Below are positions 15,958 to 35,499 of a stretch of DNA of 64,000 bases, piece after piece. Position 1 is the first letter of the stretch; each line of letters opens with the position of its first letter. The notes beneath the pieces are model-generated. The model was given only the letters and a program-made list of their open reading frames with translations. It made no database searches and was not told where the DNA came from. The stretch spans positions 28,730,532 through 28,794,531 of the forward strand of contig CM066912.1 of assembly GCA_033964015.1 (NCBI GenBank). The letters run 5' to 3'. A program made the translations under genes and the position numbers. This DNA comes from Scolanthus callimorphus (taxonomy: Eukaryota; Cnidaria; Anthozoa; Actiniaria; Edwardsiidae).

Positions 15958-16918
15958 AAATCAATGGTAAATCAATTAGAGGTCCATATTAACAATACAA
16001 TTAACTATACAGGCGTAAATATGCCTGAAATGTTTCCTTTTACGCCTAACGTTTTAGACTTAGACGTAAAATAACAACTGTGTAAATTTCAGTTTCTGCA
16101 GTGTTCTCCTGCGTCAAATTACGACTATGATTATTTCTTAATTTCGAGCCCTTAAGTGCGTGTCTTTCTAGGATTGTCCAGAGAGAAAATAGAATCGCTA
16201 AAACAAATTTTTCTCGAGCAAGTTCTAAGTAATAACCAAATTTCAACTAAACGTGGCGAATGGAAAAATACCTGGCGCAAAGCGAAATCCAAAAGGTTCT
16301 CATTAAATATCTAAATGTCCCGGAGCTTATTGCTAGAAGCTCTTAACTGAGTACTTAGTGCACAATTATAGCGATCTATTAGAATGACCGCTTGAAATGA
16401 TACTACAGTTGGCATGGCAACGCATGAAATGAAACCGCTGACCGGGCAGACGAACACACCACCTGCTACGATTGCCCTGAAAATAGACGTATTTGTACAG
16501 ACAATATAGTCAGTTTTCTAATATTGATCTTGTTTATGTATTTGACCATCTTTTTAGGCTTCTCTGACTATTTAACCATCCAATTAAAGTAAAATGTTTA
16601 CTATATCTTTGTGAGAAAACTCGAGTCACAATAGAAAAGTCAGTCGGCGTCTTGGAGTCTCTAAAAACTAATGAATCTTAAAATAAAAGTCTCAATGGCT
16701 TTAACAAGATGCAGTTCTTTTACAGCCATTAATAATAAATTATGTTGCATACGTTATAATTTCAAAGTCATAGCGACAAATGCTTTGTATTCACTTGTCT
16801 TGAATTTCCCTTGGAAACGTCGAAACACAGATCACAGTCCTATTTCCAACCTTTGGCAGCAAAGTAAAAAATAACGCCTGTAAAAAGTACGGAACATAGC
16901 GCTACAAAGTTTGTAGAA
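15958..16918. other. Upstream region of the coiled-coil gene
   Basis: I see no repeat pairing or exon here. The last 150 bp before the ATG at 16919 are presumably promoter and 5' UTR, but no TATA box or other element can be assigned with confidence. Confidence 0.4.
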
Positions 16919-18430
16919 ATGTCTGCTAAACAAGTTCGATTTAGTGCAGGACGTGAAAGAGAATTTGAAAATAACTCTCCTAAGATATCTGAAAATGTTG
17001 AAGTCAAAACACAGCAAAATGAAAACTCGTTGTTGCCCGACATTCTCCTTTCAAAGAATACCACTCAAAGCAACGAGAAAGAACCCGCAAAGAGAAAGAA
17101 AAAGAAGAAGAAAACAGAGCTACAGCAGCTCAAAGGTGAGAAAAAGATGTTACAAAAGGAGTTGAAAATTGCTAAAAAGCATATAAGAGCCGACAGTGCT
17201 CAAAAAGAAAGTGAAAGTTATTCACCGTTTGAAAATCGTCACCGGTTGGCTAGAACGACTAGTGAACTTCAAACAAAGTTGGAATCTTTGAAGGATCAGA
17301 TTTCTGTCAAGGATAAATTCAATAAAGAGAAAATAAAGAAGAGTTTTCACACGAAGATTAAGAAGAAAAGCATCAAAGCCGATAAGCAGCATAACAGGCT
17401 GATTAAGATGACTGGTAAACTGGAAAAAATAAAGCGAGGAGAGGAAGACTTGAGGATTGAAATTGCTGAAGAAATGGCTCAGCTTGACCTTGAAGAAAAG
17501 GAAAAAGAAAAGGAGTTAAATAAATTGAATGCTACACCACGAGGGATTGGAATTAGAAAGGGAGCAAAATTGGCAAAGAGCTTTGGAATAAATGATTCTA
17601 GCATCGAGGCAAAAAGGAATTCAAACCCTTTTCAAACGGCGAGTTTTAGTGGTAGGAAGTTAGGAAAGTTGTCGGAAGTTGATGATGATTCGGAAAAGAA
17701 TGTTCCAGAAAAGTCTACAAATGGGGTTGCTGTGTTCAAGCTGGATGCCGGGTTGAATGGCGCCATGGTGCCTATAGATCAAGCCCCGACCCATGCCTGG
17801 GTACGAATGCCATGTGTTGACACCGAGCCTAATATGAGACTCGGGCGAAGACTTAGCACAGTGGAGCCTAGAATCACACCTCCGCACCCTCCTATACGGC
17901 GATTCAGTTCTTTTGGACACGGAAGTAATCCGCAAGGTACCGCCCACAGCAGTATTATAAGAGGATCGAATTCGGGTACTTCCGGGTTCCAGTCCCCTAA
18001 CGAAAACACGGGTCTTTTACCACAGGGTGACCAAATCAAGCCCGAAAGAGCCGTGCGGTCCGCTGTTGGATTTGAGCGCGAACTGGATGAGGAATTGACG
18101 TCAGATTTAGCGCCCCGCGCGCTGTCAGCAAGACTACCTAATGAGCGATGGCTGAGCATAGAGGAAAAGAAAATACGAGCCGATAAATTAGCGAAAAAGT
18201 ATGAGTTCACTCGCGAATTGCGAAATACGATACACGAGCATATGATCACAAGATCTTATAGTTTCTCATATTTCAATATCATACCGCCGTACAAACACAA
18301 GAAGCAGAAGGCTGTGAAATCTAAGCAATCATACAATCGGGTAGTGTATGAGGATAAAATGAGAGTGACCGAGTTTAGTAAGAAATATGGGAGCGCTAAA
18401 CATAGAGGCAACGATCACGCAACTGCGTGA
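16919..18430 (+). CDS. Intronless lysine-rich coiled-coil protein, uncharacterised
   Basis: A single uninterrupted ORF encodes 503 residues from an ATG to a TGA. I do not recognise the family. Residues about 58-66 are a run of lysine and arginine that could serve as a nuclear localisation signal. Residues about 66-205 are charged, heptad-like and strongly predicted to be helical (LKGEKKMLQKELKIAKKH, then TSELQTKLESLKDQIS), which suggests one or two coiled coils. The middle (about 235-400) is low-complexity and proline- and serine-rich, so probably disordered. Residues about 425-490 are again helical and end in an aromatic patch, SYSFSYFNIIPP, that looks like a conserved binding peptide. No signal peptide or membrane segment is seen. 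The absence of introns in an intron-rich neighbourhood suggests a retrocopied or young gene. Confidence 0.7.
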   Translation: MSAKQVRFSAGREREFENNSPKISENVEVKTQQNENSLLPDILLSKNTTQSNEKEPAKRKKKKKKTELQQLKGEKKMLQKELKIAKKHIRADSAQKESESYSPFENRHRLARTTSELQTKLESLKDQISVKDKFNKEKIKKSFHTKIKKKSIKADKQHNRLIKMTGKLEKIKRGEEDLRIEIAEEMAQLDLEEKEKEKELNKLNATPRGIGIRKGAKLAKSFGINDSSIEAKRNSNPFQTASFSGRKLGKLSEVDDDSEKNVPEKSTNGVAVFKLDAGLNGAMVPIDQAPTHAWVRMPCVDTEPNMRLGRRLSTVEPRITPPHPPIRRFSSFGHGSNPQGTAHSSIIRGSNSGTSGFQSPNENTGLLPQGDQIKPERAVRSAVGFERELDEELTSDLAPRALSARLPNERWLSIEEKKIRADKLAKKYEFTRELRNTIHEHMITRSYSFSYFNIIPPYKHKKQKAVKSKQSYNRVVYEDKMRVTEFSKKYGSAKHRGNDHATA

Positions 18431-18535: not shown

Positions 18536-18976
18536 GTTTGCAGGTTTGAAGGCTTCGATGAAGAATATCGAAGATCATTCAGAGAACCTGAAATAATAGT
18601 CTGTGTTGACGCCCACTCAGGCAATTACTGGGTGATTTATATTTGTTCGAGGGTGCTTTTTTGTGGCATTTTCATGGTTTTTTTATGACATGTGTTCTTG
18701 CACTAAATATTTCAAAGCATTTTGTAATGATTTATTTTATATGTTGTTCCTTTTTATAATCTTTCTATATATTTTATTTATCATTAAAATTTGTGTACAG
18801 TATTGGGCAGTCACATTTGTTAACACGACCCGTACATTTTGTTCAACGGCCTCAAGACAACTTTGTTAAAATGGCCCGCTATTTTTTCCGTCTGTGGTGG
18901 TCCAAGCTGATTTAGTCCACTCTTAGCACCTCTGCACCAAGTGTCCCTCGTACAAGAATGGACAATTTATTCACCC

Positions 18977-21900
18977 TTAGCCCGTGAACTGCGATGAAAC
19001 CCATGCCAATCCCCATTTTAGGTTCGTTAGCATAAACTTTAGTGCCTTGGTCCACTGTTCTTCAGAGTTGAATTGAATTTTGATTGAAAAGGCTCCTCCG
19101 CTCCCACTGGAATCGTAAATCTTACCTTTCTCCATTCTATAAGGCAGACAGAATCGCTTGTCCACCTGGGGAGACAGAGACAGGTTTTTGTGGAGAGCAT
19201 AGACAAGTTTGTTAGATTGAGATTGATACCCTCAGTGCAAAACAATAGAGGGTCATACAATAGAACAAGGAAACAATGGGATGCTTTGTTCTGCCTATCT
19301 AATCACACAAGATCTTCTGAGAAGCTGTAGCACTCCTGGTATTTTTACTGTACTCTACCCACCTTTTCTACAGCCTCTTTGAATTGTTGTAGACAGTCCA
19401 GGAAGGCTACCATTGCATGATCAAACTTGGTGTCCCAAAAGAATCTGAATCCCCCAGATCCATATAAAGGGAGCTCTTTAGACTTGTCTGTAAGGCAGTC
19501 CAGGTAGGAGTGATTCCCAAATGGGACTAGCCGATATCTGTAGAGCACAAAAAAAAACAGTTCAAATTTGGTTCAAGAGTGGCATTACCAAACGATAGGG
19601 GTACCCAATAGAACCCATTAGAAATTTTAAATTCTGTCCACCCCCCGTGGTTGTTCAAATTAGCATCACCACAGGAAATGCGCGTAGCAAAATTTGCTCT
19701 TGAAGAGAACGAAAAGCTCTGACTGAGAGAAACAACAGAGAGCCTACATAGGAGGCTAGTTGTCTGGAACCTTTTGCATGATGTGACACAAATATAAACA
19801 TAAACAAAACAGAGAGAGAGAGACATCTTTATTTAAACAAAAATATATCTGCATGTTGTCCCATCGTAGTCCATTCGGAGAGACTATAACCTCCCTGCCC
19901 TGGAAACAACATGCTTACAAACTAAATATTTAATATATCACATAAAACACAATCTAAAAATTGGTTAACGAAGGCTCTAAAAAGCATACCTCTGAAAGGT
20001 CAGGTTCATTTTACGAGCCAAGGAGTGTAGTAGAAGCACAGTTTGACCCCAGGCAGCATTTATTTCAGACCACTCGACAGGAACACTTGGAAGGCGACCA
20101 AGACGGAAATTATTAATGGTGCCAAAATGTCCCTTATGCCATATGTGGAATGTGCTATTGAAGACGTTCGTCTTCTTTAACTTTTCAAGTTGAGCTTGGG
20201 CATACACCATCTGATTTTCAACACTAGAACAAAATAGCACCACAATAGAAATGCATAATATGTTATTCTAATCATAGCTGCCTTACATGAGGAAATTTGA
20301 CTCATTTGAAACAAGTCTATCTCTGCCTTTTTTCAAACATACTGAATTTGCCAATTTGAAATGTTCTGCACTGCTTCCTTTAAACTAACTCTTTCAATTT
20401 CAGGAATATTTTTGTACAATAAATTATTTTCATGTTTTCTAGGTGACCATGTCACATAAATGTCAACTTCTGTTTATTATACAATAAGACAGGGGGGACA
20501 GGGGTGCTTGTCCTATCCCTTAGGGTATAAAATTCATCCAACTGCTATCTCTTAGGGGTGTCCAAAGAATCTGCTATCCCTTAGGGTGTCTCACGCTAAA
20601 GGTGACCTAGAAATTCAGGGAGAACAAACCAAATTGTTTCAAGTTGATGGTATTTGCAAGGACCGCAATGACATTAGGATTTTCCACATCCAATTTGCTA
20701 CCTCTTAAGGGGCAAATTTATTTTTTACGCCCACTTCAAGATGGTGGCTAGCTAGTATAAATATTCATTATGAATCACATATTCTCATTTGACAAGTGAA
20801 TTAAAAGGAGGATGTTGACCTGCCAACTCTCTTGTTGCTCATGTGTAAGATGTTGGGGTATGAATAGGTAATTTGCACAGGGTTGAGGGTTCGCACCACC
20901 ATGAATACTTAAAAAAAGTGCCATGAAGTGGGCGTAAATAAAACAATCGCCCTCTTAGGGGTAAAATTCACTTTTGACCACACCCAATTTACTATCCCTT
21001 AGGGTTAAAATCAATTTTTCCGATAAGCACCCCCATCTATTTTATGGGAAGTCCCCCCGGGGTAAAAAAGTCAGCTCACCTTTGCTGTTCATCGTCAAAC
21101 TCCAGCAGCTCTCGATGGTACTCACAATACTCTGTATAATAACTCTTCTCAGACTCGTCAAGCTGCTTGGATGCCTCCTTCTCCTTCTCCAGAGCATTTG
21201 ACACTGCCTTGCTTTCCTCCTCGACTGCCTTCAGCTTACTTATTAACTCTGCTTCTTCCTTCTGAAGGTCTGATAACTCTTGGGTCAATGTTTCATTATT
21301 CCCTAAATAGATATTATATTGTTTGAAAATTCCACTAAAGAGCCTCAGTTAGCAGCCATTTGACCAGCCTAGTAAAATACTGAGTCAGAGAAACCATCCA
21401 TTTCCATTGGCTGATTTACATAATGGTAGTGCAATATTTTCAATTGAATTTGAAAGAATAGGCTGACTTTAGCAGTATCAACCATTAGAAGAAGTGGTTT
21501 TCAGATGACTGTCGAAAGTACAAATGTAAACAAGACTTGCGTTTTCTATGCATTCCATTGGTTGAGGTCTTGGGTCTCTGTTTACTCAGACAGGGAAGAA
21601 AATGCAAGTTGTACTTAGTTTGTCCCCTGGTTGTTCAGTTCTTGAATGGGCAATTCCAGAAAATAAAGGTACCCCCCCCCCCCCTCCCCACACGGGCAGC
21701 ATTTGGAAATTCCGAAGGGATGGGGGTTTAAGAGCTCGGAATTCTTATTGCAAGGGGGGGGGTTTCGAAGCTGGATTTCTTGTCACAAGGGGGGGTCTGA
21801 AGATGCCCAACTTCTTAAGGAGTTCGCATGTTTTTCAGTCTGCTAAATAGCGTTTTTCAGAAAGAAAATAATTTCGCCGCCATTCGATAGATAGAGAATG

Positions 21901-24900
21901 CTTGCCAGTTCGTACTTGTCCCTTCTAAGACAGAATCTCCATAATTTTCTACTGATTTTGACTGTTAGTTCAATCATGCAATCACGCAGCAGGTTCAACT
22001 TTGTACAATCACACATTGAAATTAATATAAAGAATGTTGGCGATACGGGATAAGTTGAGCTTGCATGGAAGCGCAACTTTCGCCAAAACCCGCAACTTTC
22101 CCTAACATATCTAATGAAATCCCGGAACAACACGGTATAGTTTAAAACGTTTCTCAAAAATGGTACATGTAATATGCATGTTGAATAATATGTTTTTCTT
22201 TTACTCCTTTTTAGAGTTTCTATATGGTTTTTTTCTAAACCTCAAATATTCGAAGATCCGCAAAAAGTAACAACTAGGCTTTCCAAGCTTGGTCTAGCTC
22301 ATTCTAATGTGTTTTCCTATTGGCTATATTTGGAAAAATTGTTTTAGAAAGCGATTTGAAAATGTGTGTTGCAAGTAAACAGCTTCCACACTTCATTTGA
22401 AATGTCTATTCCCCCATTTCACGATGGAATGGCGAAAGTCTCAAGTTTTTCCGTGATAATATCATATCCGATTCTTTGCCCCTACAATTCAAATCTTACA
22501 AAATAGCCAGTAAGCTACTAGCTAAACACACTAAAAATGTAGAGCTCATATTCAGTGGATGTTGTGAATGCCGGTGGTATTTTTTTCTTCAAAATCAAAC
22601 TATACTGCTCTGTATTAATATTCTGAAACAAGATTATGCGCTTTTTGTGTTTTCTTTACTTTGCAAATTTAATAAATTCCCGCAACAACCCCCGCAACTT
22701 TTGCCTTTTTCTCAGCAACGTTTTGGAAATTCTGGATGCATGGGGGGGGGGGGGATTTTCTGGAATTGCCCAATTTGTTTTTGTTTCTGATTGGCTAAGC
22801 ATATTTTCTTTGGGTTTAGTTTTTTGACACTGATCTGAAATCCACTCTACCAATAAAAATATAAAAGCAAACCTGAGAGATGCTGGTCATTCAGCTTGTG
22901 TAGGAAGTCCTTGTAGTCCTTGAGCTCATCTTCTGTTATCCTTAGTTGCTGATCAAGTTGATCCAGTAATGTATCAGTACATTCTTCACATATTGGATGG
23001 TCTACTTCAGTCTGACCAGACATGATGTCAAATAGTTGGGTGGTTACCTTTGAAGAAAACAAAAATAAAAGCAAATGTATGGTGCCTAACCACAGAGATA
23101 GAGCTGTCTGTCTGTCTGTCATCAGTCTTTCTGTCAGTTGATTGACTGATTGGCATACTTTTGGCCATTTAAAAGGGAAGCAACTTTCAGATCACAATCA
23201 ACTTTGCTGTTTTTATACTGCAGTGACCAGTTCAAAGATGCTCCTATGGTTATGGCACACTTTCTACCAATTTAAAGGCAGCTTCCTTCCTGTATCAAGC
23301 ATATATTAATTAACTGTATTCTAAAGTGTAAATAAAAAAATTGAATGGATTATTCCAGCTATAATCATGCATGCTCTCTTTTCTTTAGAAATGCCTCTGG
23401 AATGTAACACAGCTACCAGGATGCATAAAAGGCACTTGGTCCATGAAATGTAACAAAACTACCAACATGCAGGGCTCATTCATTATAGCTGGAATCACCC
23501 ACTGAACTGAATTGCTTACCTTTAGTCGGTGGCTAATGTTGTCTGACTTGTGCATAACTTGTGCATCACCTATCAGGGTAAACCCATTACCATCTGAGAG
23601 CATTCTTTTGGGTGCAAGTGTTCTCCTTTCAACCATACTGTCCTGTAACTCAGTGCTGGATTTGTCTGGTCTACTAGAGGTGCTTCCATCTGTGTTATGG
23701 AATTCTTCATCTGATATATCATCTCTACAACAGGAATAAAGTGTACGTAAGAACAAGACAGTTTTATCAATATCAAGACATGGTGTACACCTGCGAGTGT
23801 TGCCCACTGAAGAAATGAGATATTTCTTGGTTGCATGGTTGGGTAGTGTAGCATGTAAAGCACTTGCTAAATCTGTGCACCAGGTTGGATTCCCAGCCAG
23901 TTAAGCTGGGAGTTTCTCTGCTGTTTTGAACCTTGTGTTTATTGTGGGTTGAAGTGATTCATCACTTCTCCTGTGTTTCACGTCTTTCAGATGAGACAAT
24001 AAACCGAAGTCCCATTTCTCAGCCCACTACACTAAATCAGAACACAAGGGACTCACTACAGAATTATATATCTAACAACCACTCATGATTGCAAACTGCA
24101 TTGTATAAATTGCTGTCCACATCTAGGGATCAGACAAGTCCACATCTGTAAAGACTGGTTTTCATATATCGGGAACCACTGGGAACGATAGGGGATCCGT
24201 GGTTTCCCGACCATCCCAGTCAATCCCAGTTTTATGAAAACACATATCGGGAATTGTCGGCGACAACAGCGATTTACTGGGATGCGATCGGGAAAATAGC
24301 AATGGTTTCTATTTTCCCGATCGCATTCCAGGCGATTGCCAATGCCGCCAATTGTCCACGAAGCTGTGTTTTCATATGTCTGGAATTGACTGGGATGGAC
24401 GGGAAACAGGTCAACACCGATCATTCCTGACAGTCCCGACATATGAAAACCAGCCTTTAACCACATTTGAACATGTATGGATAATTGCGATATACAAGTG
24501 TGTACATTTCATTGCATTTTGTATGTGTGGTATGAAACCCACAAATGGTGTCAAAGGTTGCACCTCCCTGACCTGAAAACAACTGTCAGACTCGCCCCGT
24601 AAGATGGTTTGGCCATGCAGAGAGTAGCAACAGATGGATCAGAGTAGGGTGTAGGCCCAGGAACAGGCCACGCAAGACATGGCAAGAGGTTATTTCTTTC
24701 ACCCTGAAGCGGGGTAAAGCGGAAGGGTTTCAGCGGAAGGAAAGGCTCAATGATAAAATAATGGAACATGATACTAAACCTGGTAGGGTACTCGGGCAGC
24801 GGGGCTGTCAGCTCGGCAATTGTATCTCCATCTACGGAAGAGATTGAGTGATGAATCTTGAGGGGTTGATAGCACCTCTGGCACACAAAACTAACATGCG

Positions 24901-24943
24901 TTGTCCCTCGTACAACTTCAGAAGGTTGTTTCGCAGTCGCCAT
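18977..24943 (-). CDS. BECN1: Beclin 1 (autophagy PI3K complex subunit), seven coding exons
   Basis: The coding exons on the minus strand are 24943-24780, 23724-23520, 23047-22873, 21302-21080, 20223-19990, 19537-19363 and 19165-18977. All junctions are GT-AG and the phases join to 454 codons plus stop, close to the 450 residues of human Beclin 1. Exon 1 has the conserved N-terminal zinc-binding-like segment ([12 protein letters not shown]). Exon 2 ends at the BH3 helix, exon 4 is the coiled coil, and exons 5-7 are the evolutionarily conserved C-terminal membrane-binding domain ([49 protein letters not shown]). Beclin 1 scaffolds the VPS34 lipid kinase to start autophagosome formation. In the BH3 helix the usual Gly-Asp is Thr-Gln (LKVTTQLF). 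The gene is head to head with a BAK homologue 500 bp away, and several introns hold mobile elements. Confidence 0.96.
20490..21062. mobile_element. Poly-G/C-ended element with CTATCCCTTAGGG repeats, in BECN1 intron 4
   Basis: The left end reads AGGGGGGACAGGGGTGCTTG and the right end AGCACCCCCATC...GGGAAGTCCCCCC, an imperfect terminal inverted repeat. The motif TATCCCTTAGGGTATAAAAT and variants recur at both sides of the interior. The right end lies only about 17 bp from the splice donor of BECN1 exon 4. A second member is in the BAK intron at 26861-27070. Confidence 0.7.
21490..22853. mobile_element. Nested inverted-repeat elements in BECN1 intron 3
   Basis: Two layers can be seen. The outer ends are GTGGTTTTCAGATGACTGTC and GACACTGATCTGAAATCCAC, a family A-like inverted repeat. 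Inside, GGGCAATTCCAGAAAATAAA with a C run (21672-21684) at about 21647 faces a 13-G run (22742-22754) and ATTTTCTGGAATTGCCC at about 22772. Near each inner end lie GGAAATTC motifs and G-rich runs resembling the minisatellite elements. I see no coding sequence. Confidence 0.6.
23833..24530 (+). mobile_element. tRNA-derived SINE copy in BECN1 intron 1, split by a MITE
   Basis: The sequence matches the better copy at 28673-29083 over its length: a decayed tRNA-like head (GTGTAGCATGTAAAGCACTT, box B region GGTTGGATTCC), then the shared body (TTTCACGTCTTTCAGATGAG, CAACCACTCATGATTG) and tail (GATATACAAGTG, then an ATT-rich end). It is interrupted at 24152-24457 by a 306-bp MITE. The box B consensus is altered, so this copy is probably inactive. 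Confidence 0.75.
24152..24457. mobile_element. MITE with TAA target duplication (Harbinger-like)
   Basis: The terminal inverted repeats are GACTGGTTTTCATATATCGG and CCGACATATGAAAACCAGCC, and weaker copies of the same unit recur inside (TTTTATGAAAACACATATCG, TTTTCATATGTCTGGAATTG). TAA flanks it on both sides (24149-24151 and 24458-24460), and the uninterrupted SINE copy at 28673-29083 shows the empty-site sequence, with one such triplet. A TWA duplication is typical of the PIF/Harbinger superfamily, which is the inferred class. Confidence 0.75.
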
Positions 24944-25443
24944 TCAAGTATGAAAAGTTTCACTACTTGAATTACTTTTTCACACTGGAAATGAACTACA
25001 TCGTTCTGGCAGAAGTAAAGGTGTATGGTTTACCTTTGCAGAAAGAATATTTCCTAATAATATACAGTACTAGATTTAGAAAAACATCGAAGGGCAAAAG
25101 GAAACAAATAAATTCAGGTTTCCTCCATTTTGTTTTCAATCTATTACACCGCCGGAGGCTTCTGGGTAAAATACGCCACAGGGAGACCGCATTCGAAATT
25201 ATGTAATAAGCAGAAATTTAAATTCTATAAAATTTGAAATATAAATGTGTACAACACAGTTCTTTTGGCTAGGTAAATAAATATTGTACACTTATGTCAA
25301 ACGTTATTACTGAAAAATATATTTTGTTGCGCTTTTAAAGAGATTGCATAACCTAGCACATGACGGTATCCCTGTGTTAATTTGCGTATCGCCGCTGTAT
25401 TTTTTGGAGCCCGAGATTTCTCATTTCGAAGTACTTGACAAAA
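24944..25443. promoter_or_regulatory. Shared BECN1/BAK bidirectional promoter interval
   Basis: Only 500 bp separate the BECN1 start codon (minus strand) from the BAK start codon (plus strand). Any promoters and both 5' UTRs must therefore overlap or abut here unless distant upstream exons exist. No clear TATA box is seen. Candidate sites are CCTCCATTTTG (about 25124-25134, reverse of a YY1-type CAAAATGG motif) and CAAAAATGGCG at the BAK start codon itself. Confidence 0.6.
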
Positions 25444-27264
25444 ATGGCGTCCTCGGCTGCCGGCAACAACTCATCAGCCGAAGATCCAGAGGAAACCGAA
25501 AGACCCGAAACCAATGAAAGGGTAGTTGTCAGAGACACAGAAGGCGTCTTTCGCTATTTTATGTACCAACGCTTTCAGGAAGAAACCGAAAGAGGCGACA
25601 ACGAGGTTCAATTCACTAGCGCTCGCTCTGACGCTCTCGAAGAACTCCGATCTTGCAACGATCATTCTCAGCAGCATATAGCGACGATAGGACGGCGATT
25701 GGGAGAAGTAGGAGATGAAATAGATGCCAAATACAAAGACCAGTTTCAGGACATGATAGAAAGTTTGTACCTCACCCCCGGAACGGCCTATGACACTTTT
25801 GCCGCAGTGGCTCGGAGGCTTTTCCGCTCGGGGATAAGCTGGGGCAGAATAATCGCTCTGCTTTGCTTCGGATACGAAATTGCTATAACTGTTATACGAA
25901 GAGGATTCAGTGGCAGCTTCCTGAGGAGGATTATTCGATTTGTGGTGGACTTTATTTTCCGCGAAAGAATAGCCCGTTGGATTGCTGAACACGGAGGCTG
26001 GGTAGGTGAAATGTACAAGATTCTCGAATACTCGATCAGCAGGCTTCTGTTCTGTCTCGTCTATCAATCCAATGCTTTGTTATCGTTTTAGTAGTAAACA
26101 GTGGTGAGAATTATTGCAAGAGATACAATCTATTAGTTGTGTTTTTCCGGCGCATTGATTCCTGAATTATATATATTGTCTGACTGTACACAAAAACCTG
26201 CAAGCTTTTCATATTAATCTGAAATTTATCACAACAAAAACAGAAAAAAACCTTTTTTCAGTTTATATCGGAAACAAACGTGAATTGACTTTATTCCAGC
26301 TTTTTTGATGCTGAAAGCATGAGGAGACAATAAGCGAAAACAATCTGCAAATATAGATGTACTTAAAGCATTTTACATCCAAGTATTTAATGAATAATAT
26401 ATTTAGCTTGTTGATGTCATTATCAAGCATTTCTAAAATGGCATTGATTGCAATCTCTGCTGACAGTAAATATTTTCCTAGAGTTTTCCTGTCTTGACTT
26501 GATTTGCATTAAATGTATTGTGCACAGGAAGGGGAGGTAAGGGTGTAGTTAAGCTAAAGAAAGTTTTTCCTTTCACTGAGGGCAAAAAATCAGCTTTTCG
26601 CTGAAATGTGTTTTCAGTTTCCTTCAGATTTTAAGGAACTACTGAAGAGTGCTTTTCTCCCAGAATGATTTGATGTTCTTTACTTAGAAAATACTATTTT
26701 GTAATAAAAAAATATTTAATATTTTAATCCTGCTGATTGTTTTCAGGTTTAGTTGATAATCCATCCTCTAGCATGCTTGTGCAAACAATTTGATCATACA
26801 TAGCAAGCATGAGCCAATTTAGCAATTAGTAGTTCCTATTATTGGGATACTACAGGACAGAGGGGGGGGGGGGGGACTTCCCATAAAAATAGATGGGGGT
26901 GCTCTTCCTATCCCTTAGGGTATACAATTCACCCACCTGCCATCTCCAAAGAGTCTGCTATCCCTTAGGGTATAAAATTCACCCACCTGCTATCTCTTAG
27001 GGATGTCCAAAGAGTCTGCTATCCTTTAGGGGGCCTCACATCAAAGGTGACCTAGAAATTCAGTGACAACAGAATAAATTGTTTCAAATTGAGGTCTATT
27101 TTTGCAATAAATACTCGGGAGCCACCTTAATCTATAACCTTCTATTGTTCAAGGTATCGGTGATGGATTTCCGTCTGTCTGAACCAAGCTGGTACACCGT
27201 TGGGACTGTAGTTGTCCTAGGAGTGCTTGTTGCGGTCTGGGCTACACAAAGACTCAAGAAATAA
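25444..27264 (+). CDS. BAK1: BAK-type multidomain Bcl-2 family effector, two coding exons
   Basis: Exon 1 (25444-26001) encodes 186 residues and exon 2 (27154-27264) a further 36, giving 222; human BAK has 211. I chose the ATG at 25444 for its ACAAAATGG context. BH3 is at residues about 82-96, with L-G-E-V-G-D intact, BH1 at about 128-147 (SGISWGR) and BH2 at about 176-186 (ARWIAEHGGW). The second exon supplies the C-terminal membrane anchor (about 200-217, TVVVLGVLVAVW) and a basic RLKK tail. The splice falls directly after the Trp codon of BH2, the position conserved across Bcl-2 genes. BAK forms pores in the outer mitochondrial membrane in apoptosis. The surrounding residues (AKYKDQF, IARWIA) resemble BAK more than BAX or BOK. 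Read-through past the donor would give a tail of 30 other residues to 26091. Confidence 0.93.
26092..27153. other. BAK intron, partly repeat
   Basis: The intron formally starts at 26002. It is AT-rich and carries an element with CTATCCCTTAGGG repeats from 26861 to about 27070. The acceptor TTGTTCAAG precedes exon 2. Confidence 0.6.
26861..27070. mobile_element. Poly-G-ended element with CTATCCCTTAGGG repeats, one end only
   Basis: It begins with a 14-G run (26862-26875) and ACTTCCCATAAAAATAGATG, matching the inverted right end of the copy at 20490-21062. Three copies of CTATCCCTTAGGG(TATAAAATTCACCC) follow. The other terminus is missing, and the remnant stops about 85 bp before the BAK exon 2 acceptor. 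Confidence 0.7.
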
Positions 27265-28080
27265 GACCCTCTGGCTTTAGGTTTCTATTCATAGCAGCCA
27301 TGGTAGGGTAATGTAAATACTAAGTGCACAAGTTGGATAAATTTTACACAAGGCTGGCGGTTGCAACAGGCTTTATCAAAAAGTATGAGTAAGTTGGGAT
27401 GCGAATATAGCAATTAAAAAGGGGGGGGGGGGGTTAGTGATCCTGTACTCTCCCTACCCCTGCCCTATTTCTCTCTAGCTCCCCCTTGGGACATTTTAAC
27501 TATAGCAAAGGGTCTATAATTCCAGCTAATTTAACTGTTTACTTTCTGAGTTCCAATCCCATCCAAAGCCTAGCATTTTTTTTTATTGCAGGTTCTTTTT
27601 TCAGTAGTGTCTTAGGGTCTCATTTTGCACAAATAAAAATTAATGCTCATATTTTATGGTTAATTAGACAATGAAGTTGCAGTAAGAGTAGCTTGCTTGC
27701 AGAGGGTAGAGGGTGTTTTAATCACAGAAAACCAGAGTTCATGATTGTGACTGCCATCTTGGTTTTCCTGACAAAACAAGGGGCAAGAATGATAGAATCC
27801 CAATGCTGGGGTTTTCCGTGAAGGGATAAAAACACCATACAGCAAGCAGACTACATACATTATGAAAACAAATTTCTATTTCAATGATACAAACTTAAAG
27901 ACAGTTACATTATTCCTAAAGCTTGTTGAATGATTAGGAACTGTGAGGGATGATATTTAAAATATCACTTATAATAAAAAGGCTGAAGATACTGAATAGT
28001 ACATTGTACAGTCATTTCAAACATATGTATGTGAAAAACTATTACCTTTGCCAGTGGGAGAAAAATATAAGTAAACACAC
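27265..28080. other. BAK 3' flank
   Basis: This region holds the presumed 3' UTR of BAK, a 13-G run at 27421-27433 and AT-rich sequence. No other exon is recognised. Confidence 0.45.
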
Positions 28081-28287
28081 AGGGCTCGATCTTAACGGTG
28101 GTCAACTAGCCAAATACTAGTAGAATTTTCGTTTTGGCTAGTGGATTTTTGCTCTTTAATAGCCATATAGGGTACTGGATTTTTGGCAAGGAAGTAAAAA
28201 ATATAGTAGAAAATATATTATGGCTAGTGAATCTTGGCCATTTACTAGCCACTTGACTACTATTTTCAAAAGTTAAGATCAAGCCCT
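28081..28287. mobile_element. MITE with AGGGCTCGATCTTAA ends
   Basis: The ends AGGGCTCGATCTTAACGG and AAAGTTAAGATCAAGCCCT are inverted repeats. The interior repeats GGCTAGTGGATTTT-type phrases several times (28137, 28164, 28225). There is no ORF. Confidence 0.65.
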
Positions 28288-28672
28288 GAGACATGAGTTT
28301 AGGTGTGTAACAAGGTTGTGCTGTAATCCCAGTGCCAAAGATAACCATGTTTGGGGGAACAATTAAATGAATACCACCCCCTGGTATTCTCACTTCCCTC
28401 CTAGTTGGCAAATTTGGCTTTTTCTGGGATAACACATCTCAACTCACTAATATAAATTGTAACAAAAAAATATCCAAAGCTGTAGTTTGCTTTTACTAAA
28501 GCCAGGTGCGAACTTGTGACATAACAACATCAGAAAAATATCACACAAACAAAATTTAGTGGTTTCAAAAAGTTAAAATCCCCCAAAATATTGCTTTGGT
28601 GAAGTAATCTAATGAAGTTCCATGGAGAATATTGATTTTATTTCAATTATTTTCCCATACTTTTTTCGTGAA

Positions 28673-29083
28673 GCACGGGTGGCGCAGCGTGTAAAGCGTT
28701 TGCCTCTCACCTCTGTGCACCGGGTTCGAATCCCAGTCAGGGGCAGTTGGGATTTTTCTCTGCTGTTTCTAACCTTGTGTCCATGGTGGGTTGAAGTGAT
28801 TCGTCATTTCGCCTGTGTTTCACGTCTTTCGGATGAGACAATAAAACCGAGGTCCCGTCTCTCAGCCCACTACACTTAACCACTATGCGAGGGACGTTAA
28901 ACAATCACAGTGCTCACCACAGAATGTAATCTAACAACCACTCATGATTGTAAACTGCATTGTATAAATCGCAGTCCGCATCTTAGGGATCAGACATATC
29001 CACATCTGTAAACCGCATTTGAACATATTCATATGATAATTTGCGGTATACAAGTGCCTACATTACATTACATTACATTACAA
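28673..29083 (+). mobile_element. tRNA-derived SINE, full length
   Basis: The head is tRNA-like: box A GTGGCGCAGCGTGT (about 28679) and box B GGTTCGAATCC (28722-28732) at the expected spacing. A conserved body with TTCACGTCTTTCGGATGAGA follows, then a shared 3' region ending in CATTACATTACATTACATT, a pentanucleotide tail as many SINEs have. The copy at 23833-24530 is a diverged relative. RNA polymerase III transcription is inferred from the intact boxes. Confidence 0.85.
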
Positions 29084-30275
29084 CATCCTTATGTTGCAAG
29101 TGTGCACCGCTTAAGCAAACATTCAGCTCACCTTTAAGTAAGAGCACAGCAATATTAGTGCAAATAGAATATTTTCTGAAAAATATAATTTGTTATGTTT
29201 GGCACTGGTAGTGTAAGGGCATTTTAGCACCAACAAGTGAAAAGTACCCTTATACAGAATTCTAATTTGTAATGTAGCAATCTGGCAAAATAATTAGCAA
29301 TAAAAGTTTGTGTTTTATGCTGAACGGAGATTTTTTCCGGTTGTGGTTCACCAAACATTTTTGGTCCCATCAGTCAAATGTCTAACGAGTTACATTTTGC
29401 AAAACCCTCTGTGAGATAATTTTGGTTACTTAGTGTTTGGTATTTTTACCTTAGATTTGTATACATAATAGGACTCCATGCTGTACAATTAAGAAAACAT
29501 TGGATAAGAAATTTCAGAGGAACCCAAAATTAGGAGTCCAATTTGATGTTCCAAAGAATTTGACAAGGATAGAGTGCTGTTATTATTTATAAATTCAGGG
29601 GAGGATTTAGGGGGAGAGCCCCTCCTTGAGATTCACATACATTTACTATATTTGCTGAGGGCTAATGTGAAAATATTCGTCACATGTTTTCACTTACTGG
29701 CCCCACTTTCTGAAATTCCTGGATCCGCCCCTGAATTCCATAGCATTCAGACATGACTTGCAATCCAATAGACCTTTTCACAGTCCCTGGCTTTATTCTG
29801 ACTCAAATTGGAATTCTAGCCTGAATTTGAGTCTGCCGTTGACCAAACAATACATTGGTCAATTAGAGGCTAGATCACAATGGAGCAAGTAACTGAAAAG
29901 AACTATTAAGGAGAAATTGGACACTTGACAAAACTAGAAAAAAAAATCCATGACAATATTGGGTTTTGAGGTGGCAATTACCGTAGGAATTTTAGTTTTC
30001 TTAATACATTGATGGACTGGTTGAGTATTTCCACACAACAGTTTCCATAGATGCCAACCCAACAAGTCAATGAAGCAGGAGATTTGGGTCAAACTGCAAA
30101 TACAGTAACAGTGTATGAGGAAAAACGGGAGAGTTGGCACTAACTAAATAAAGGGACAACATCCATGTTTAACTTGCATTTCCTTTTTTTTTCAAACTGC
30201 TCATCCTAATGTGCCATATAATAATTCAACACTTATGTTAAATACTCAAACCTTTTAGGGATTACCACTATGTAT
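29084..30275. other. Intergenic with a small inverted-repeat element
   Basis: At 29767-29907 the ends AATAGACCTTTTCACAGT and ACTGAAAAGAACTATT are imperfect inverted repeats of a TA-type MITE related to the one at 57544-57938. At 29590-29735 remnants of the GGATCCGCCCCTGAATT family occur. No exon is seen. Confidence 0.45.
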
Positions 30276-30522
30276 TGCTACGTGACCTAAAAATTCAATG
30301 TTGCGATGGGCAATTGGCGATTTTTAGCTGTCAATCAAACCAAAACGCTGGATATGGCTGCTTCAGGGGGTCAATAGTGATTGAAAAATCAACCAAAATG
30401 GTTTTAAGGTATCCTTGGCTTCCTTGCCTAGAATGTTTAACTTTCTGTTCAAGAAAATTGATATCTAAATTTGCTTGCGTAAAATCGCCAATCGCAACAG
30501 TGAATTTTGAGGTGGCGTAGCA
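30276..30522. mobile_element. MITE with GCTACGTGACCTAAAAATTC ends
   Basis: The left arm (TGCTACGTGACCTAAAAATT...GCAATTGGCGATTTT) faces AAAATCGCCAATCGCAAC...GAATTTTGAGGTGGCGTAGCA. The arms are about 45 bp with a few mismatches. No coding sequence. Confidence 0.7.
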
Positions 30523-30615
30523 ATGCATACGGTGGTAACATGACAAGCTAATATAAATATGAACATTGCCTTTAACATTTTTTGCTCTTGGATAATAATA
30601 TCATGGGAAAATGAC

Positions 30616-31200
30616 TATCACACCTTGTATAAAAGTATTACAATCATTATGCTCATTAAAATAGGAGATGTTATACAACTCTTTTAAATATGACAACTAA
30701 AATGAATAAAATGTACCTTCGTAACTGCTAAAAAAATTATCTACAACCTTATATTGAATAAACATGACTAAGAATTTAAAATGTAGCAAGTTGAGAAATT
30801 CCGGTGTCCTGAAGTGTCTACCCTTCTCACTAGACAGCTACATGTTCCTTCACCTACTGCCTGCTCTAATGTTCCAAGAAGAGTAGGTATACATTGTTCT
30901 ACTGTTCAAACTATCTGATAATCAACACTAAGTCAGGGACATCAACCCCAGAACTTCATAATCTGGAGACCGCTTTGAAATGGCAAAATTTCCTGTAATT
31001 CTCCACGGTGAAACACAGTACATGTATGGCAGTCGTCTTGAATTTTTCCCAGGAGACGAAAAATATTGAGGCAAAACTGGGAAAGTTGATGTCCCTGCAA
31101 GGGGATCTCAGTCCAGCTGATCACACCTTGTATTAAAATATTACAACCATTGTTGTCCTCATTAAAATAGGAGATGCTATACAACTCTTTTAAATATGAC
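30616..31200 (+). repeat. Pair of 80-bp direct repeats 0.5 kb apart
   Basis: The segments 30616-30694 and 31119-31200 share CACCTTGTAT...TTACAA, CTCATTAAAATAGGAGATG and ATACAACTCTTTTAAATATG with few differences, in the same orientation. They lie just downstream of TMEM19 on its strand, so they may be duplicated 3' UTR or repeat sequence. Confidence 0.7.
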
Positions 31201-31518
31201 ACCCATGCACACAATGCACAAAAAAGGGTTGTAAAACTAAAACATTCCTAGGTCTAGCGAGAGATACCTGCGTTTTCACAGTTTTGGGATAAAAGCAAAA
31301 CCTCAGAGCTGCAAATAATGCTGGAAATCTGCTTGAAATGCTTGGTGATGCAACAAAAATTGTTCTGGTTGGCAAATTTGGTAATGCTAATCTAATTTCA
31401 CCAAAATACCATTCAAACCCAAGCCTCTCACCCTTGAGTTATAAGACTGTTCACTTCGTTTTTAACTCCCAGCCTTTGACATAATAATATGTTCTGCTAC
31501 TCGGGTTCGATGGTGAGA

Positions 31519-32803
31519 TTATTTGTTATCTATATATTTCCAGAAGTAGTAGCCAAATAAAGCCATAGAGAAGCTTGTAACAGCAGACGAGACTAAATTC
31601 ACAAAGTGGTTATTCAACAGAAGAAGCCCAGAGATGTGCTTGGTAGTTGGAGACGGTTTATTGACAACATGTTTCTTAACTGAGCAATAACCTGAGTATT
31701 GTAGGGTAGCCCCTAGAATAGAATCTACTATTGACCCAAACAATCCTCCCACTAAGCCTACCACAACTATAGGCCACTGGGAAGGAATATTTGGTTGTTT
31801 GTTTCGTAGTAAGACTGTGATGAACAGAGTTCCATAGTATGCGAGCCCAATGAAAAGGCCCCCAAACAAGCTAGCAAGTATTCCAGGAATAGTAACACCA
31901 CCATTGGTACCAGTAGGAACTTTCCTTAATGTGGTAATTAATCTTGGGGCATGGCTTTTAAATGCAGTCCCAATCTCGGATGACCATGTGTCACCACAGC
32001 TACATGATATGGCACCTAAAATTGCCATGGCAACAAGGGAGGCATCAAAGTCATGAGCATAATCTATTATCCTCTCACCACTTCCATTGTCCAACAAATA
32101 TATGGTAGATAATAAAGCAGCAACTCCAGCATTGCATATGACTTGTATCCAATTACGTTGGCCCCCTAAGAGTTGAAATATAAAATATGTATTATGTTAA
32201 AAACGTTTAGTTTAGTCTGACACGATGTGATCACAAATATTTAGAGCCTCCTTAATAAGCTTAATGCATTCAATGCACTTCCCGTGCTAGCAGAAGAGGC
32301 CTCTGCTAGCAGGGAATCAATGCACAGGTGCAAAGTTTAAACTATTCATAAAACAGGTTTGCTGCAACGATCGAAAATGTTTGGAATGCGAGGCTCCTAG
32401 CTGCGTAAAACGATTCCCAAATTTATAGGAATTCTACCACGTCGCTATTGGCATTAATTTAAGCTTAAAATATTTCCAAAGTTCAAAGTTCGCTACATAA
32501 GTTAAGTTAATGCAATTTCTCATGATATCTGTTTTCGAGTTAAATCTAAATCCTACCTTCTTTAAAATCATCCTCTAGTTCTCTTTTCACATCCTCTCTG
32601 AATTTCGTCAATTTTGAAGAGCTCAAATAGAAAATCAACAAACAGGCGAAGAAACACAAGTTGGTCGCTGTCAACACAAAACCCACAAGAACAGCCACGA
32701 TCGCACCAGAAAAATCCAGCGACTTGTTTTGGTATCCACGGCGTGTAATCGCACAGCAGACAGCGAAAGCAAATCCACAGCGAAGTATAAATTCACTGTG
32801 CAT
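31519..32803 (-). CDS. TMEM19: Transmembrane protein 19 (DUF92 family), two coding exons
   Basis: Exon 1 (32803-32557) encodes 82 residues and exon 2 (32165-31519) the remaining 215, joined in phase 1 through a GT-AG intron to give 297 residues; human TMEM19 is somewhat longer, with extra N-terminal sequence. Diagnostic segments are LDFSGAIVAVLVGF, FYLSSSKLTKFR, SCGDTWSSEIG, PRLITTLRKVPTGTNGGVT, SQWPIVVVGLVGGLFGSIVD and ILGATLQYSG, all in family order. Several membrane helices are apparent. The family is multi-pass and includes the plant phytyl-phosphate kinase VTE6, so a polyprenyl-phosphate kinase-like role is possible, but the animal function is unsettled. It is head to head with a CCDC34-like gene. 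Confidence 0.95.
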
Positions 32804-33077
32804 ACTCTTTTAAAAGATCGTATTAAATAAACGTCCAAAATAAATAACTTTTCAAAGACCTGTTTCTTTCATTAGAAACGGTCGCCATTTTGTTTTCAAC
32901 AATGCGCCTGCGGGCATTAGGGCAGCAGATATACCCATGGGACCGCCATTGGAGCATAAAAACACAACGAAATTTCACCTCCAAATTTTGCTGGATTTAT
33001 TGCTTTTTGCTCAAGTTCTAGACAGTTTTCATTTCTTTTTTGGCTTCAAGTTCACTTGAGCTACATTTAGACTGTAA
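32804..33077. promoter_or_regulatory. Shared TMEM19/CCDC34 promoter interval with YY1-like site
   Basis: Only 274 bp lie between the two divergent start codons. GTCGCCATTTTG at 32881-32892 is, on the minus strand, CAAAATGGCGAC, a close match to the YY1 consensus. A partial second one (ACCGCCATTGG) lies at about 32941. No TATA box is obvious. Short, TATA-less and YY1-bearing intervals are typical of bidirectional housekeeping promoters. Confidence 0.65.
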
Positions 33078-34060
33078 ATGGAAGGCTATTCTCTCGATTC
33101 TTTAGGGGACTCAACGAGATCGTTGCTATCGCCTCTCTACTCTGAACAACAACAACAAAATTCGAAAGAAAAATCACATTCCCGCTCACTGGATCACTCA
33201 TATGGATCAAATACAAGTAATTCAAGCACTGATTTAGAAAGTCTTTTGAACTCAAGTAGTGTAAGGTCAAGTTCTACGCCTAAAAGAAAGAGCAAAAAGT
33301 CAACAACCAGATCTAGTTATTCATCTGGCGTTAGTCATAGTGATAGAACTTTTACAGAGAAGGAAAATAAACCCAAAGAGCTAAGTCCTTGGGAAAAATG
33401 GCTCATTGATAAGACTGTAAAGGAGAGAGAAGAAATGAGCCGCCGTAAAGAACAAAGGAGGAAAGAGAAACAAGAATTAGAGAAGCAAAAAAGAGACAAA
33501 GAAAAACTGGAAAGAGACAGAGAGATTAAGATTCAAGAGTGGCTTGCAGAGAAAGACAGACGGTCTGTGCTTTCAAGAAGTAGTACTCGAAAAACTGAAG
33601 AAGAGCTAATGGCCAAAAAGAGGAGGAAAAACAAATAATTGATGAGAAATCAAAAGTTGCTTATGACAAATGGCTTCAGGAGAAGATGAATTCAGAACAT
33701 GAGAGAAAACAAAATGAGGAAATGGAAGTCAGGAGAAAGAAAGATGAACTTGTGGAAAAGAAAATGAAAAGTGAGCAAGCATATGAGGATTGGTTAAAGA
33801 ACGCAAAGTCCAGACCACATGGTGTTTCTGATAATTTTTGTTATGCAGGAGGAAAATTGACTGGATACTACATGTGGGGGTCATATCCTGCTCCAAAATA
33901 CTGTAACCCATTACCATGGCAACCAACTGTGTCAAAGAGGAGCAAAAGTGCTAGAGGCAAGAAGGGAGAAATGCAACCACCCTCCCCTCCCTTGTTATTT
34001 AGAGACCAGGAGAAGAGAGAGTTGGGTAAAAAGGCAGGAAAAAGAATTTCACCAAGCTGA
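33078..34060 (+). pseudogene. CCDC34: CCDC34-like coiled-coil protein gene with one frameshift
   Basis: The first frame (33078-33638, 186 residues) has a serine-rich N-terminus, the conserved SPWEKWLIDK motif and a lysine/glutamate-rich coiled coil. At about 33622-33630 the homology moves to another frame. It continues as a coiled coil (VAYDKWLQEKM, AYEDWLKNAK) and ends in the CCDC34 C-terminal signature: YAGGKLTGYY, then SYPAPKYCNPLPWQP, stop at 34058-34060. The change corresponds to one missing base or two extra bases, and no GT-AG intron can bridge it. CCDC34 is linked to cilia and sperm flagella in vertebrates. The downstream frame is fully open and conserved, so an assembly error or a very recent mutation is likelier than an old pseudogene. 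There is no intron across the region. Confidence 0.85.
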
Positions 34061-34206
34061 AACATGAATTTTTGATATGAACAAATTGTTATCTGTCTCA
34101 AAATTCCATGACCATAGCAGTACTCTTTTCACATTCCAGTCAAGGGGCAGCAACCAGATGTGTGGCTAGCAACAATTGTATGAATGTTGTTACTAGTCAA
34201 CCCCCT

Positions 34207-34374
34207 CAGTGGTGGATCCAGAAACTTTTCAAGGGGGTGCACAGAATATAAACAATATATAAAGTATGTGGCTAAAAAATGTTCTGCAGTAAGACAGTTT
34301 CATACATTTCCTGTAAAATGTAAAACAAAGGGGGTGCATAGGCACCCATTGTACCCCCTCTAAATCCGCCACTG
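34207..34374. mobile_element. hAT-like MITE (CAGTGGTGGATCCAG ends)
   Basis: The ends CAGTGGTGGATCCAGAAAC and CTAAATCCGCCACTG are inverted repeats of the widespread CAGTGGCGGATCCAG type seen in hAT-derived elements of many animals. The 168-bp body has no ORF. A fragment of the same type is at about 36360-36410. Confidence 0.65.
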
Positions 34375-35499
34375 CCCCTCCCCTGAATGACTCAAAATAT
34401 AGACTAGAATTTGAGGTTGCCTTCAATTTTGCAACTAAAATGCTACTCGATGCAACTAAATTTATGCAACAATCTGTTAAAGTGCAATTATTAACATTGT
34501 TTAAGCTGGAGCCCTGTCTCATAATGTGCTTTGTCATTCCCAGTTGTACAAAATTTTCATTTTTGTAGCTTTTTAATAGTACTATTTTTTATCATGTCAC
34601 AGGCTTTTGCTTAGTGTAACTTTTTAATAGTACTTCTGCAGGAAGCATTATTACTCAAAAACTTGATCATACCTGCCTCGTACCCAAGCACCGCAAACCT
34701 GCGGTGATCTGTGAAAGGTAAAATCTCGAGGGGTACAATGCAGCATGGGAAGGCTCGGGTGCTGTCGCAAAGTACTCAACTCAATAGCATTATAACAGAT
34801 CGATAAATTATTTATTGTTAATAGTTATTTATTAGTCAAGTTATATATGGGCTACATTGTGCAAAAACGACATGGACAGCATTAATGTACATGAATGGAA
34901 AGTGTAACTAAAATGTCTTCCAGAAAGTTAATGTCTTCAAATGTTTTGCCTGTTTTGTACTTGTGCTAAGAAAACTAATACTTGAAAAATATATACATCA
35001 GTTGAAAGAAAGAAATCCTAAGTTTTTGTCATTGTCATGCCAGCCAGCCCTTATTGCCTGACGTCGCCTATTCTGTAATGGGCAGTTGCAAAAAGATATG
35101 TAAGTAAAGATCTCTTGAATTCTCTCATGGTGGGTATTCCCAAGATATTGAGAATTCTAGATAGGTACATAAAGTTCAGAGCCAAGTTCTTGAAAGGCAG
35201 GATAGCTCTATTTATAGGAGAATAGATGTGCCTTAGTTATAGGGATTACTTTAATATTCCTGTGATAGAACAGCTCACCACTAAGAGGAACTTCACTGGA
35301 ATGGCAGGGTGAGGGACAATGCAAGATTTCCACAATACATCGGTTGCTAAAATGTGGATGATCTGACTGCAAAACAGATGCCACCCTAAAAATGGTCCCA
35401 TTTGCCAAAGTAGGAAGCTAATCGTTGAGTCACAGAAGAAAATACTGTTAGCGAAATAGTTTTCTAGGTTTTGACTAAAATAAGAATCTCTAGAAAGAG
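34375..35499. other. Intergenic, no gene recognised
   Basis: AT-rich sequence with a short palindrome (TTGAATTCTC...GAGAATTC, 35115-35157). A minus-strand open stretch at 35208-35397 behind a TTTTGCAG acceptor could be an alternative last exon of the gene upstream, but no homology supports it. Confidence 0.4.

What the first reader, a model, noticed from the sequence alone, without database searches (positions are those of the whole stretch)
18977..27264. Beclin 1 and a BAK effector are head to head on one 500-bp interval
The minus-strand gene reads as full-length Beclin 1 and the plus-strand gene as a BAK-type protein, with start codons 500 bp apart. Beclin 1 carries a BH3 helix that in vertebrates binds anti-apoptotic Bcl-2 proteins, and those same proteins restrain BAK. 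In human the two genes are on different chromosomes. A shared promoter would co-regulate an autophagy initiator and an apoptosis executor in this lineage, for example under thermal stress or bleaching. The linkage is seen; the regulatory consequence is inferred.
Basis: partly seen in the sequence, partly recalled or inferred. Interest (0 to 1): 0.82.

Follow-up and report, generated by a model that had tools for sequence, protein, structure and literature searches.

The report
Anemone Beclin and BAK, adjacent genes
In one sea-anemone-like genome an autophagy gene and a cell-death gene really do start back to back, 500 bases apart, but the arrangement looks like an ordinary gene neighbourhood rather than a conserved control circuit.

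Summary
A complete Beclin 1 gene (minus strand, 7 coding exons, 454 aa) and a complete BAK gene (plus strand, 2 coding exons, 222 aa) lie head to head, 500 bp between start codons. Both are intact in a second copy of the block, 318 kb away. The interval keeps its CpGs while both gene bodies are depleted, which fits one promoter zone.

The larger interpretation lacks support. In Dendronephthya they also lie on different scaffolds. So the contact looks lineage-specific. About 8 kb away TMEM19 and CCDC34 are head to head too (274 bp). No heat-shock element was found, though few were expected. The acidic BH3 residue of Beclin is Gln here and not acidic in 10 of 10 named cnidarian rows; Gln may still allow binding. 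Expression could not be tested. Verdict: a real, ordinary divergent gene pair.

The parts
24780..24943 (-). Beclin 1 coding exon 1 (ATG at 24943)
   Evidence: N-terminus resembles Nematostella Beclin (by eye)
23520..23724 (-). Beclin 1 coding exon 2 (first half of BH3)
22873..23047 (-). Beclin 1 coding exon 3 (second half of BH3, VTTQLFDIM)
21080..21302 (-). Beclin 1 coding exon 4 (coiled coil)
19990..20223 (-). Beclin 1 coding exon 5 (BARA domain)
19363..19537 (-). Beclin 1 coding exon 6 (BARA domain)
18977..19165 (-). Beclin 1 coding exon 7 with stop (BARA domain)
24944..25443 (.). 500-bp interval between the two start codons; GC 0.338, CpG o/e 1.05; presumed shared promoter zone
25444..26001 (+). 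BAK coding exon 1 (BH3, BH1, BH2 up to GGW)
27154..27264 (+). BAK coding exon 2 (C-terminal hydrophobic tail, stop)
31522..32803 (-). TMEM19 coding sequence seen here (matches 32555-32803 and 31525-32166), ATG at 32803; tail to tail with BAK
33078..34057 (+). CCDC34-like gene, head to head with TMEM19, 274 bp between ATGs; its start was not checked against a relative

Best explanation
An ordinary divergent gene pair. At some point in the sea-anemone lineage a rearrangement brought Beclin 1 and an older BAK-TMEM19 block together, so that the two 5' ends now share one CpG-retaining promoter zone of roughly 0.5-1.4 kb. Transcription leaves this zone in both directions. Both genes use the same open chromatin and may be loosely co-expressed for that reason, but there is no dedicated autophagy-apoptosis switch. 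Shown: gene structures, the 500-bp gap, intactness in two copies, the CpG profile, different contig lengths for the two genes in two other cnidarians. Inferred: the shared promoter, the rearrangement and its direction, and the absence of special regulation.
For: Gene models and gap. Second intact copy. Beclin BARA-domain exons found only in these two copies, 5 matches. CpG o/e 0.92-1.23 over 24.8-26.2 kb against 0.05-0.23 in the five 600-bp windows from 26.4 to 28.6 kb and at most 0.35 in 8 of 15 windows of the Beclin body. Nematostella: Beclin on a contig of 1,068,422 bp, BAK on 3,256,212 bp, TMEM19 also on 3,256,212 bp. Dendronephthya: Beclin 2,058,963 and 122,050 bp, BAK 2,634,848 bp. A second head-to-head pair, TMEM19-CCDC34, lies in the same window with its own CpG-retaining stretch. 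Divergent pairs are common and many are species-specific.
Against: Equal contig lengths also occur by chance among short contigs of the BAK and TMEM19 lists (1,381 and 1,709 bp). The interval's CpG o/e is not rare in the window as a whole: 65 of 254 windows are as high, and one Beclin intron also reaches 0.73-0.88. BAK coding CpG o/e is 1.02, on the weakly methylated, more plastic side of the Acropora threshold 0.46, so BAK may be regulated. No transcript data were available.
Confidence: 0.75

Rival explanations
1. A selected control module: the shared promoter sets autophagy initiation and the apoptotic executor together, for example under stress.
For: Known functions of the two families; a CpG-retaining zone between the genes; arrangement kept in both copies; BAK coding sequence not CpG-depleted.
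Against: Different contigs in Nematostella and Dendronephthya; no heat-shock element in the interval, though only 0.01 three-unit and 0.33 two-unit sites were expected; Beclin coding CpG o/e 0.39, on the strongly methylated, stable-expression side of the Acropora threshold, a threshold that may not carry over, since most cnidarians lack discrete bimodality (passages of PMC8857923); the same layout for TMEM19-CCDC34, a pair for which I know of no functional link (recalled).
Confidence: 0.1
2. An old cnidarian pair, later broken in Nematostella and Dendronephthya.
For: Only two named species could be checked; the pair could exist elsewhere.
Against: Needs two independent breaks, while BAK-TMEM19 linkage seems kept in Nematostella and in an unnamed ENA genome.
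Confidence: 0.1
3. Two independent promoters that happen to be close, with no co-regulation at all.
For: 500 bp is room for two separate core promoters.
Against: The CpG-retaining stretch is continuous from about 24.8 to 26.2 kb, but the resolution is about 600 bp.
Confidence: 0.04
4. Assembly artefact.
For: The genome carries second copies of several loci.
Against: No N in the window; both copies show the contact, with 495 of 500 interval bases identical.
Confidence: 0.01

Closest known systems
Divergently paired genes with a bidirectional promoter (head-to-head pairs, under 1 kb)
   Same: Opposite orientation, 500 bp between start codons, a CpG-retaining zone between them.
   Different: Start codons only, transcription starts unmapped; co-expression untested.
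Metazoan Beclin 1 (BECN1/Atg6)
   Same: All three Pfam domains; BH3 split over two exons, as PMC7022251 describes for Beclin-1 (passages).
   Different: Gly-Asp of the human BH3 is Thr-Gln.
Cnidarian BAK (Nematostella BAK; AmBak of Acropora, PMC4715348, passages)
   Same: 84% identical to Nematostella BAK over 84% of the query; BH3 with GD, GGW, hydrophobic tail; tree support 97/94 with Nematostella.
   Different: Lies next to Beclin; in Nematostella the two are on contigs of different length.

Membership tests
Beclin 1 | BARA domain, coiled coil and BH3 region in one protein | tested here: met
   PF04111 2.9e-77, PF17675 6.1e-31, PF15285 2.3e-11
Vertebrate-type Bcl-2-binding BH3 in Beclin (a feature of some members, not of the Beclin family) | Acidic residue at the position of human Asp121 | tested here: not met
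   TQ in place of GD; non-acidic in 10 of 10 named cnidarian rows; acidic in 62 of 120 listed rows; Gln may be tolerated. The residue number is recalled.
BAK effector | Bcl-2 domain with BH3, BH1, BH2 | tested here: met
   PF00452 6.1e-27; alignments; motifs judged by eye
BAK effector | Closer to BAK than to other Bcl-2 proteins | tested here: met
   First 18 of 60 PDB rows shown are BAK; BAX and BOK were not compared in a tree
BAK effector | C-terminal membrane anchor | tested here: met
   Hydrophobic tail in exon 2, aligned with coral BAKs, judged by eye
BAK effector | Pore formation in the mitochondrial outer membrane | not testable with these tools
   -
Bidirectional promoter pair | Opposite strands, starts under 1 kb apart | tested here: inconclusive
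   500 bp between ATGs; transcription starts unmapped
Bidirectional promoter pair | One promoter drives both genes | tested here: inconclusive
   CpG profile only
Conserved functional gene pair | Contact kept in relatives | tested here: not met
Conserved functional gene pair | Co-expression | not testable with these tools

The most novel reading that the evidence does not exclude
In this anemone lineage the joining of the Beclin and BAK promoters created a new transcriptional coupling of autophagy and apoptosis, in a group whose protein-level coupling (Beclin BH3 to Bcl-2) may be weaker because its Beclin lacks the acidic BH3 residue.
Probability: 0.05. Interest if true: 0.65.

Novelty: new member of a known kind. 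Interest (0 to 1): 0.22.

Why it matters
If the pair were regulatory it would be a natural experiment in joint control of autophagy and apoptosis. As it stands it shows how readily a plausible story arises from a gene neighbourhood, and it supplies a control pair (TMEM19-CCDC34). A side result bears on a common assumption: among the Beclin rows listed, Asp in the BH3 is seen only in vertebrates where a name is given, and no named cnidarian row has an acidic residue there, so the Beclin-Bcl-2 link should be tested rather than assumed in corals and anemones.

Tried and rejected
Looked for other cnidarian loci in viral contigs (TMEM19, BAK) and genome contigs (Beclin): no relatives confirmed. To annotate neighbours, 63 of the 108 window ORFs of 80 aa or more outside 16.8-28.5 kb were scanned with Pfam, among them 46 of the 47 of 100 aa or more; ten of them were scanned singly. 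Other ORFs were not scanned, so genes may have been missed. Papers: ten searches; no title or abstract start listed there describes a Beclin-BAK neighbour pair. I first put the TMEM19 start at 32888 (gap 189 bp; and notebook entry 2); the Nematostella protein shows the start at 32803 (gap 274 bp), so the first value is withdrawn. I considered calling both genes constitutive from CpG depletion; rejected for BAK, coding CpG o/e 1.02. I considered that the BH3 change abolishes Bcl-2 binding; rejected as too strong. I first took the acidic BH3 residue to be a vertebrate feature; the recount shows Glu in 6 of 120 rows, one of them named Capitella, so only the statement about Asp is kept. A guess that human BECN1 shares a promoter with PSME3 (recalled) was searched and not borne out by the listing. 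No structure prediction was run.

Full report
What is there. On the minus strand a Beclin 1 gene runs from its ATG at 24943 to its stop at 18977 in seven coding exons with GT-AG introns, giving 454 aa. It carries the BARA domain, the coiled coil and the Beclin BH3, each above Pfam's cut-off, and its best PDB row is Beclin-1, E 6.3e-178. On the plus strand a BAK gene has two coding exons, 25444-26001 and 27154-27264, 222 aa; the Bcl-2 domain matches at 6.1e-27, and the first 18 of the 60 PDB rows shown are BAK before Bcl-xL appears. The gap between start codons is 500 bp. Both N-termini resemble those of relatives (by eye), so the starts are probably right.

Is the contact real. The window lies in a 597-Mb assembly of 302 contigs, at C2:28730532-28794531. 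A second copy of the block lies on the same contig, 318 kb away; its two main pieces are 98.1 and 98.6% identical to the window, a third short one 96.3%. It belongs to a longer collinear stretch covering about 63 kb on the window's side, in pieces of 94-99% identity with unaligned gaps between them, the largest about 15 kb. Both genes are intact there; Beclin differs at 2 residues and BAK at 3, and 495 of 500 interval bases agree. The Bcl-2 search gave 17 matches, ten of them in five pairs of equal score, the window's BAK and its second copy being one pair. I read this as uncollapsed haplotypes, but a true duplication is not excluded. The Beclin BARA domain was found only in these two copies, 5 exon matches in all.

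Which lineage. A tree of the window's Beclin and 15 of the 120 listed rows puts it with Nematostella, Actinia and Actinostola, support 100/97; the join with Nematostella alone is 85/82. In a tree with 29 of the 54 BAK rows it joins Nematostella at 97/94, Nematostella being the only named anemone there. So this is very likely a sea anemone; the species, and whether it has algae, are unknown, and the bleaching setting is unsupported.

Promoter zone. CpG o/e in 600-bp windows is 0.92, 1.23 and 1.07 from 24.8 to 26.2 kb. On the BAK side it is 0.05 to 0.23 in the five windows from 26.4 to 28.6 kb. In the Beclin body it is at most 0.35 in 8 of 15 windows and 0.43 to 0.88 in the other seven, highest at 21.6-22.6 kb in an intron; the Beclin gene from 18977 to 24779 as a whole has 0.41. 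The interval itself (1.05) is not rare in the window: 65 of 254 windows are as high. In cnidarians CpGs are lost where gene bodies are methylated (passages of PMC8857923). A CpG-retaining stretch between two depleted bodies fits one promoter zone and gives no hint of distant first exons, but the evidence is indirect. Beclin coding sequence has CpG o/e 0.39, below the Acropora threshold of 0.46 for strongly methylated genes, which tend to be stably expressed; BAK coding sequence has 1.02, above it (passages of PMC4378018; values), chiefly because its first exon lies in the CpG-retaining stretch. So constitutive expression is suggested for Beclin and open for BAK, and most cnidarians do not show the discrete two-class pattern. 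The interval has no heat-shock element, but only 0.01 three-unit and 0.33 two-unit sites were expected, so absence is weak evidence.

Is the pair conserved. The protein database gives the longest contig for each cluster. In Nematostella, Beclin (P0001) is on 1,068,422 bp, BAK (P0121) on 3,256,212 bp and TMEM19 (P0175) also on 3,256,212 bp; each cluster has one contig. In the window TMEM19 is the next recognised gene beyond BAK. Between them four ORFs scanned singly gave no Pfam match; two more (30242, 30334) were scanned only in bulk, where no families but DUF92, C2, CCDC34, GIY-YIG and reverse transcriptase appeared, and one (31193) was not scanned. In Dendronephthya, Beclin rows are on 2,058,963 and 122,050 bp and BAK on 2,634,848 bp. 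A contig length of 329,975 bp appears for one BAK row and one TMEM19 row, both unnamed and from ENA. No Beclin row among the 120 listed, of 3006 found, has either 3,256,212 or 329,975 bp. Equal lengths arise by chance among short contigs (1,381 and 1,709 bp occur in both the BAK and the TMEM19 list); at 330 kb and 3.26 Mb that is much less likely. The simplest reading is that BAK-TMEM19 linkage is old and the Beclin-BAK contact is derived in this lineage. Lengths are not coordinates, and a scaffold end could in principle fall between the genes.

How unusual is it. Divergent pairs under 1 kb hold 31.6% of fly genes and 6-55% in other eukaryotes, and many are species-specific (PMC2670823: abstract and two sections seen); a figure of about 10% stands in the abstract start of PMC4089025 (listing only). 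In this very window TMEM19 (ATG 32803) and a CCDC34-like gene (ATG 33078, not checked against a relative) form a second head-to-head pair with 274 bp between starts, with CpG o/e 0.77-1.20 at 32.4-33.4 kb, though only 0.54 in the 189 bases just upstream of the CCDC34 start. I know of no functional link between those two.

The protein link. In human Beclin the BH3 reads VTGDLFDIM; here it is VTTQLFDIM. Of the 120 Beclin rows listed, 56 have Asp at this place, 6 have Glu and 58 neither. Of the 56 with Asp, 50 carry a name and all are vertebrates (names, residues). Of the 6 with Glu one bears a species name, Capitella. The 10 named cnidarian rows, from 8 species, carry Q, K, L or R. A hagfish row lacks the acidic residue too. 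The acidic residue is described as essential for canonical binding, but Asn or Gln can be tolerated (section 8 of PMC9171138). So the vertebrate interaction cannot be assumed in cnidarians, but in this species it is not excluded.

Verdict. The linkage is real and well read. It is best explained as an ordinary, lineage-specific divergent pair with a probable shared promoter zone. Co-regulation of autophagy and apoptosis remains possible, and no positive evidence for it was found here.

Noticed in passing
22873-23724: The acidic residue of the Beclin BH3 (Asp in named vertebrates) is Gln here and non-acidic in 10 of 10 named cnidarian rows; 6 of 120 rows have Glu.
   Followed up: partly
L009; G000:C2:29067500-29077400: A second, about 98% identical copy of the Beclin-BAK block 318 kb away, within about 63 kb of interrupted collinear sequence.
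   Followed up: partly
31522-34057: TMEM19 and a CCDC34-like gene are head to head with 274 bp between start codons.
   Followed up: partly
18800-37000: A mostly CpG-depleted domain with CpG-retaining stretches at the two divergent promoters, and lesser rises at 21.6-22.6 and 28.4-29.4 kb; the rest of the window is mostly not depleted, apart from about 0.8-3.0 kb.
   Followed up: partly
16868-18427: A 520-aa open frame on the plus strand, coiled-coil-like by eye, no Pfam match, ending about 550 bp from the Beclin stop.
   Followed up: no
20490-20600 and 26870-27060: A similar repeat ('tatcccttagggtata') occurs in a Beclin intron and in the BAK intron, seen by eye.
   Followed up: no
4709-5488: Weak reverse transcriptase match below Pfam's cut-off; one other scanned ORF, position not identified, matches GIY-YIG at 1.3e-8.
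   Followed up: no
42172-43002: C2-domain open frame on the plus strand, E 3.8e-30.
   Followed up: no
G000: 17 Bcl-2 domain matches in the genome, ten of them in five pairs of equal score, such as C14:809535 and C14:974911.
   Followed up: no
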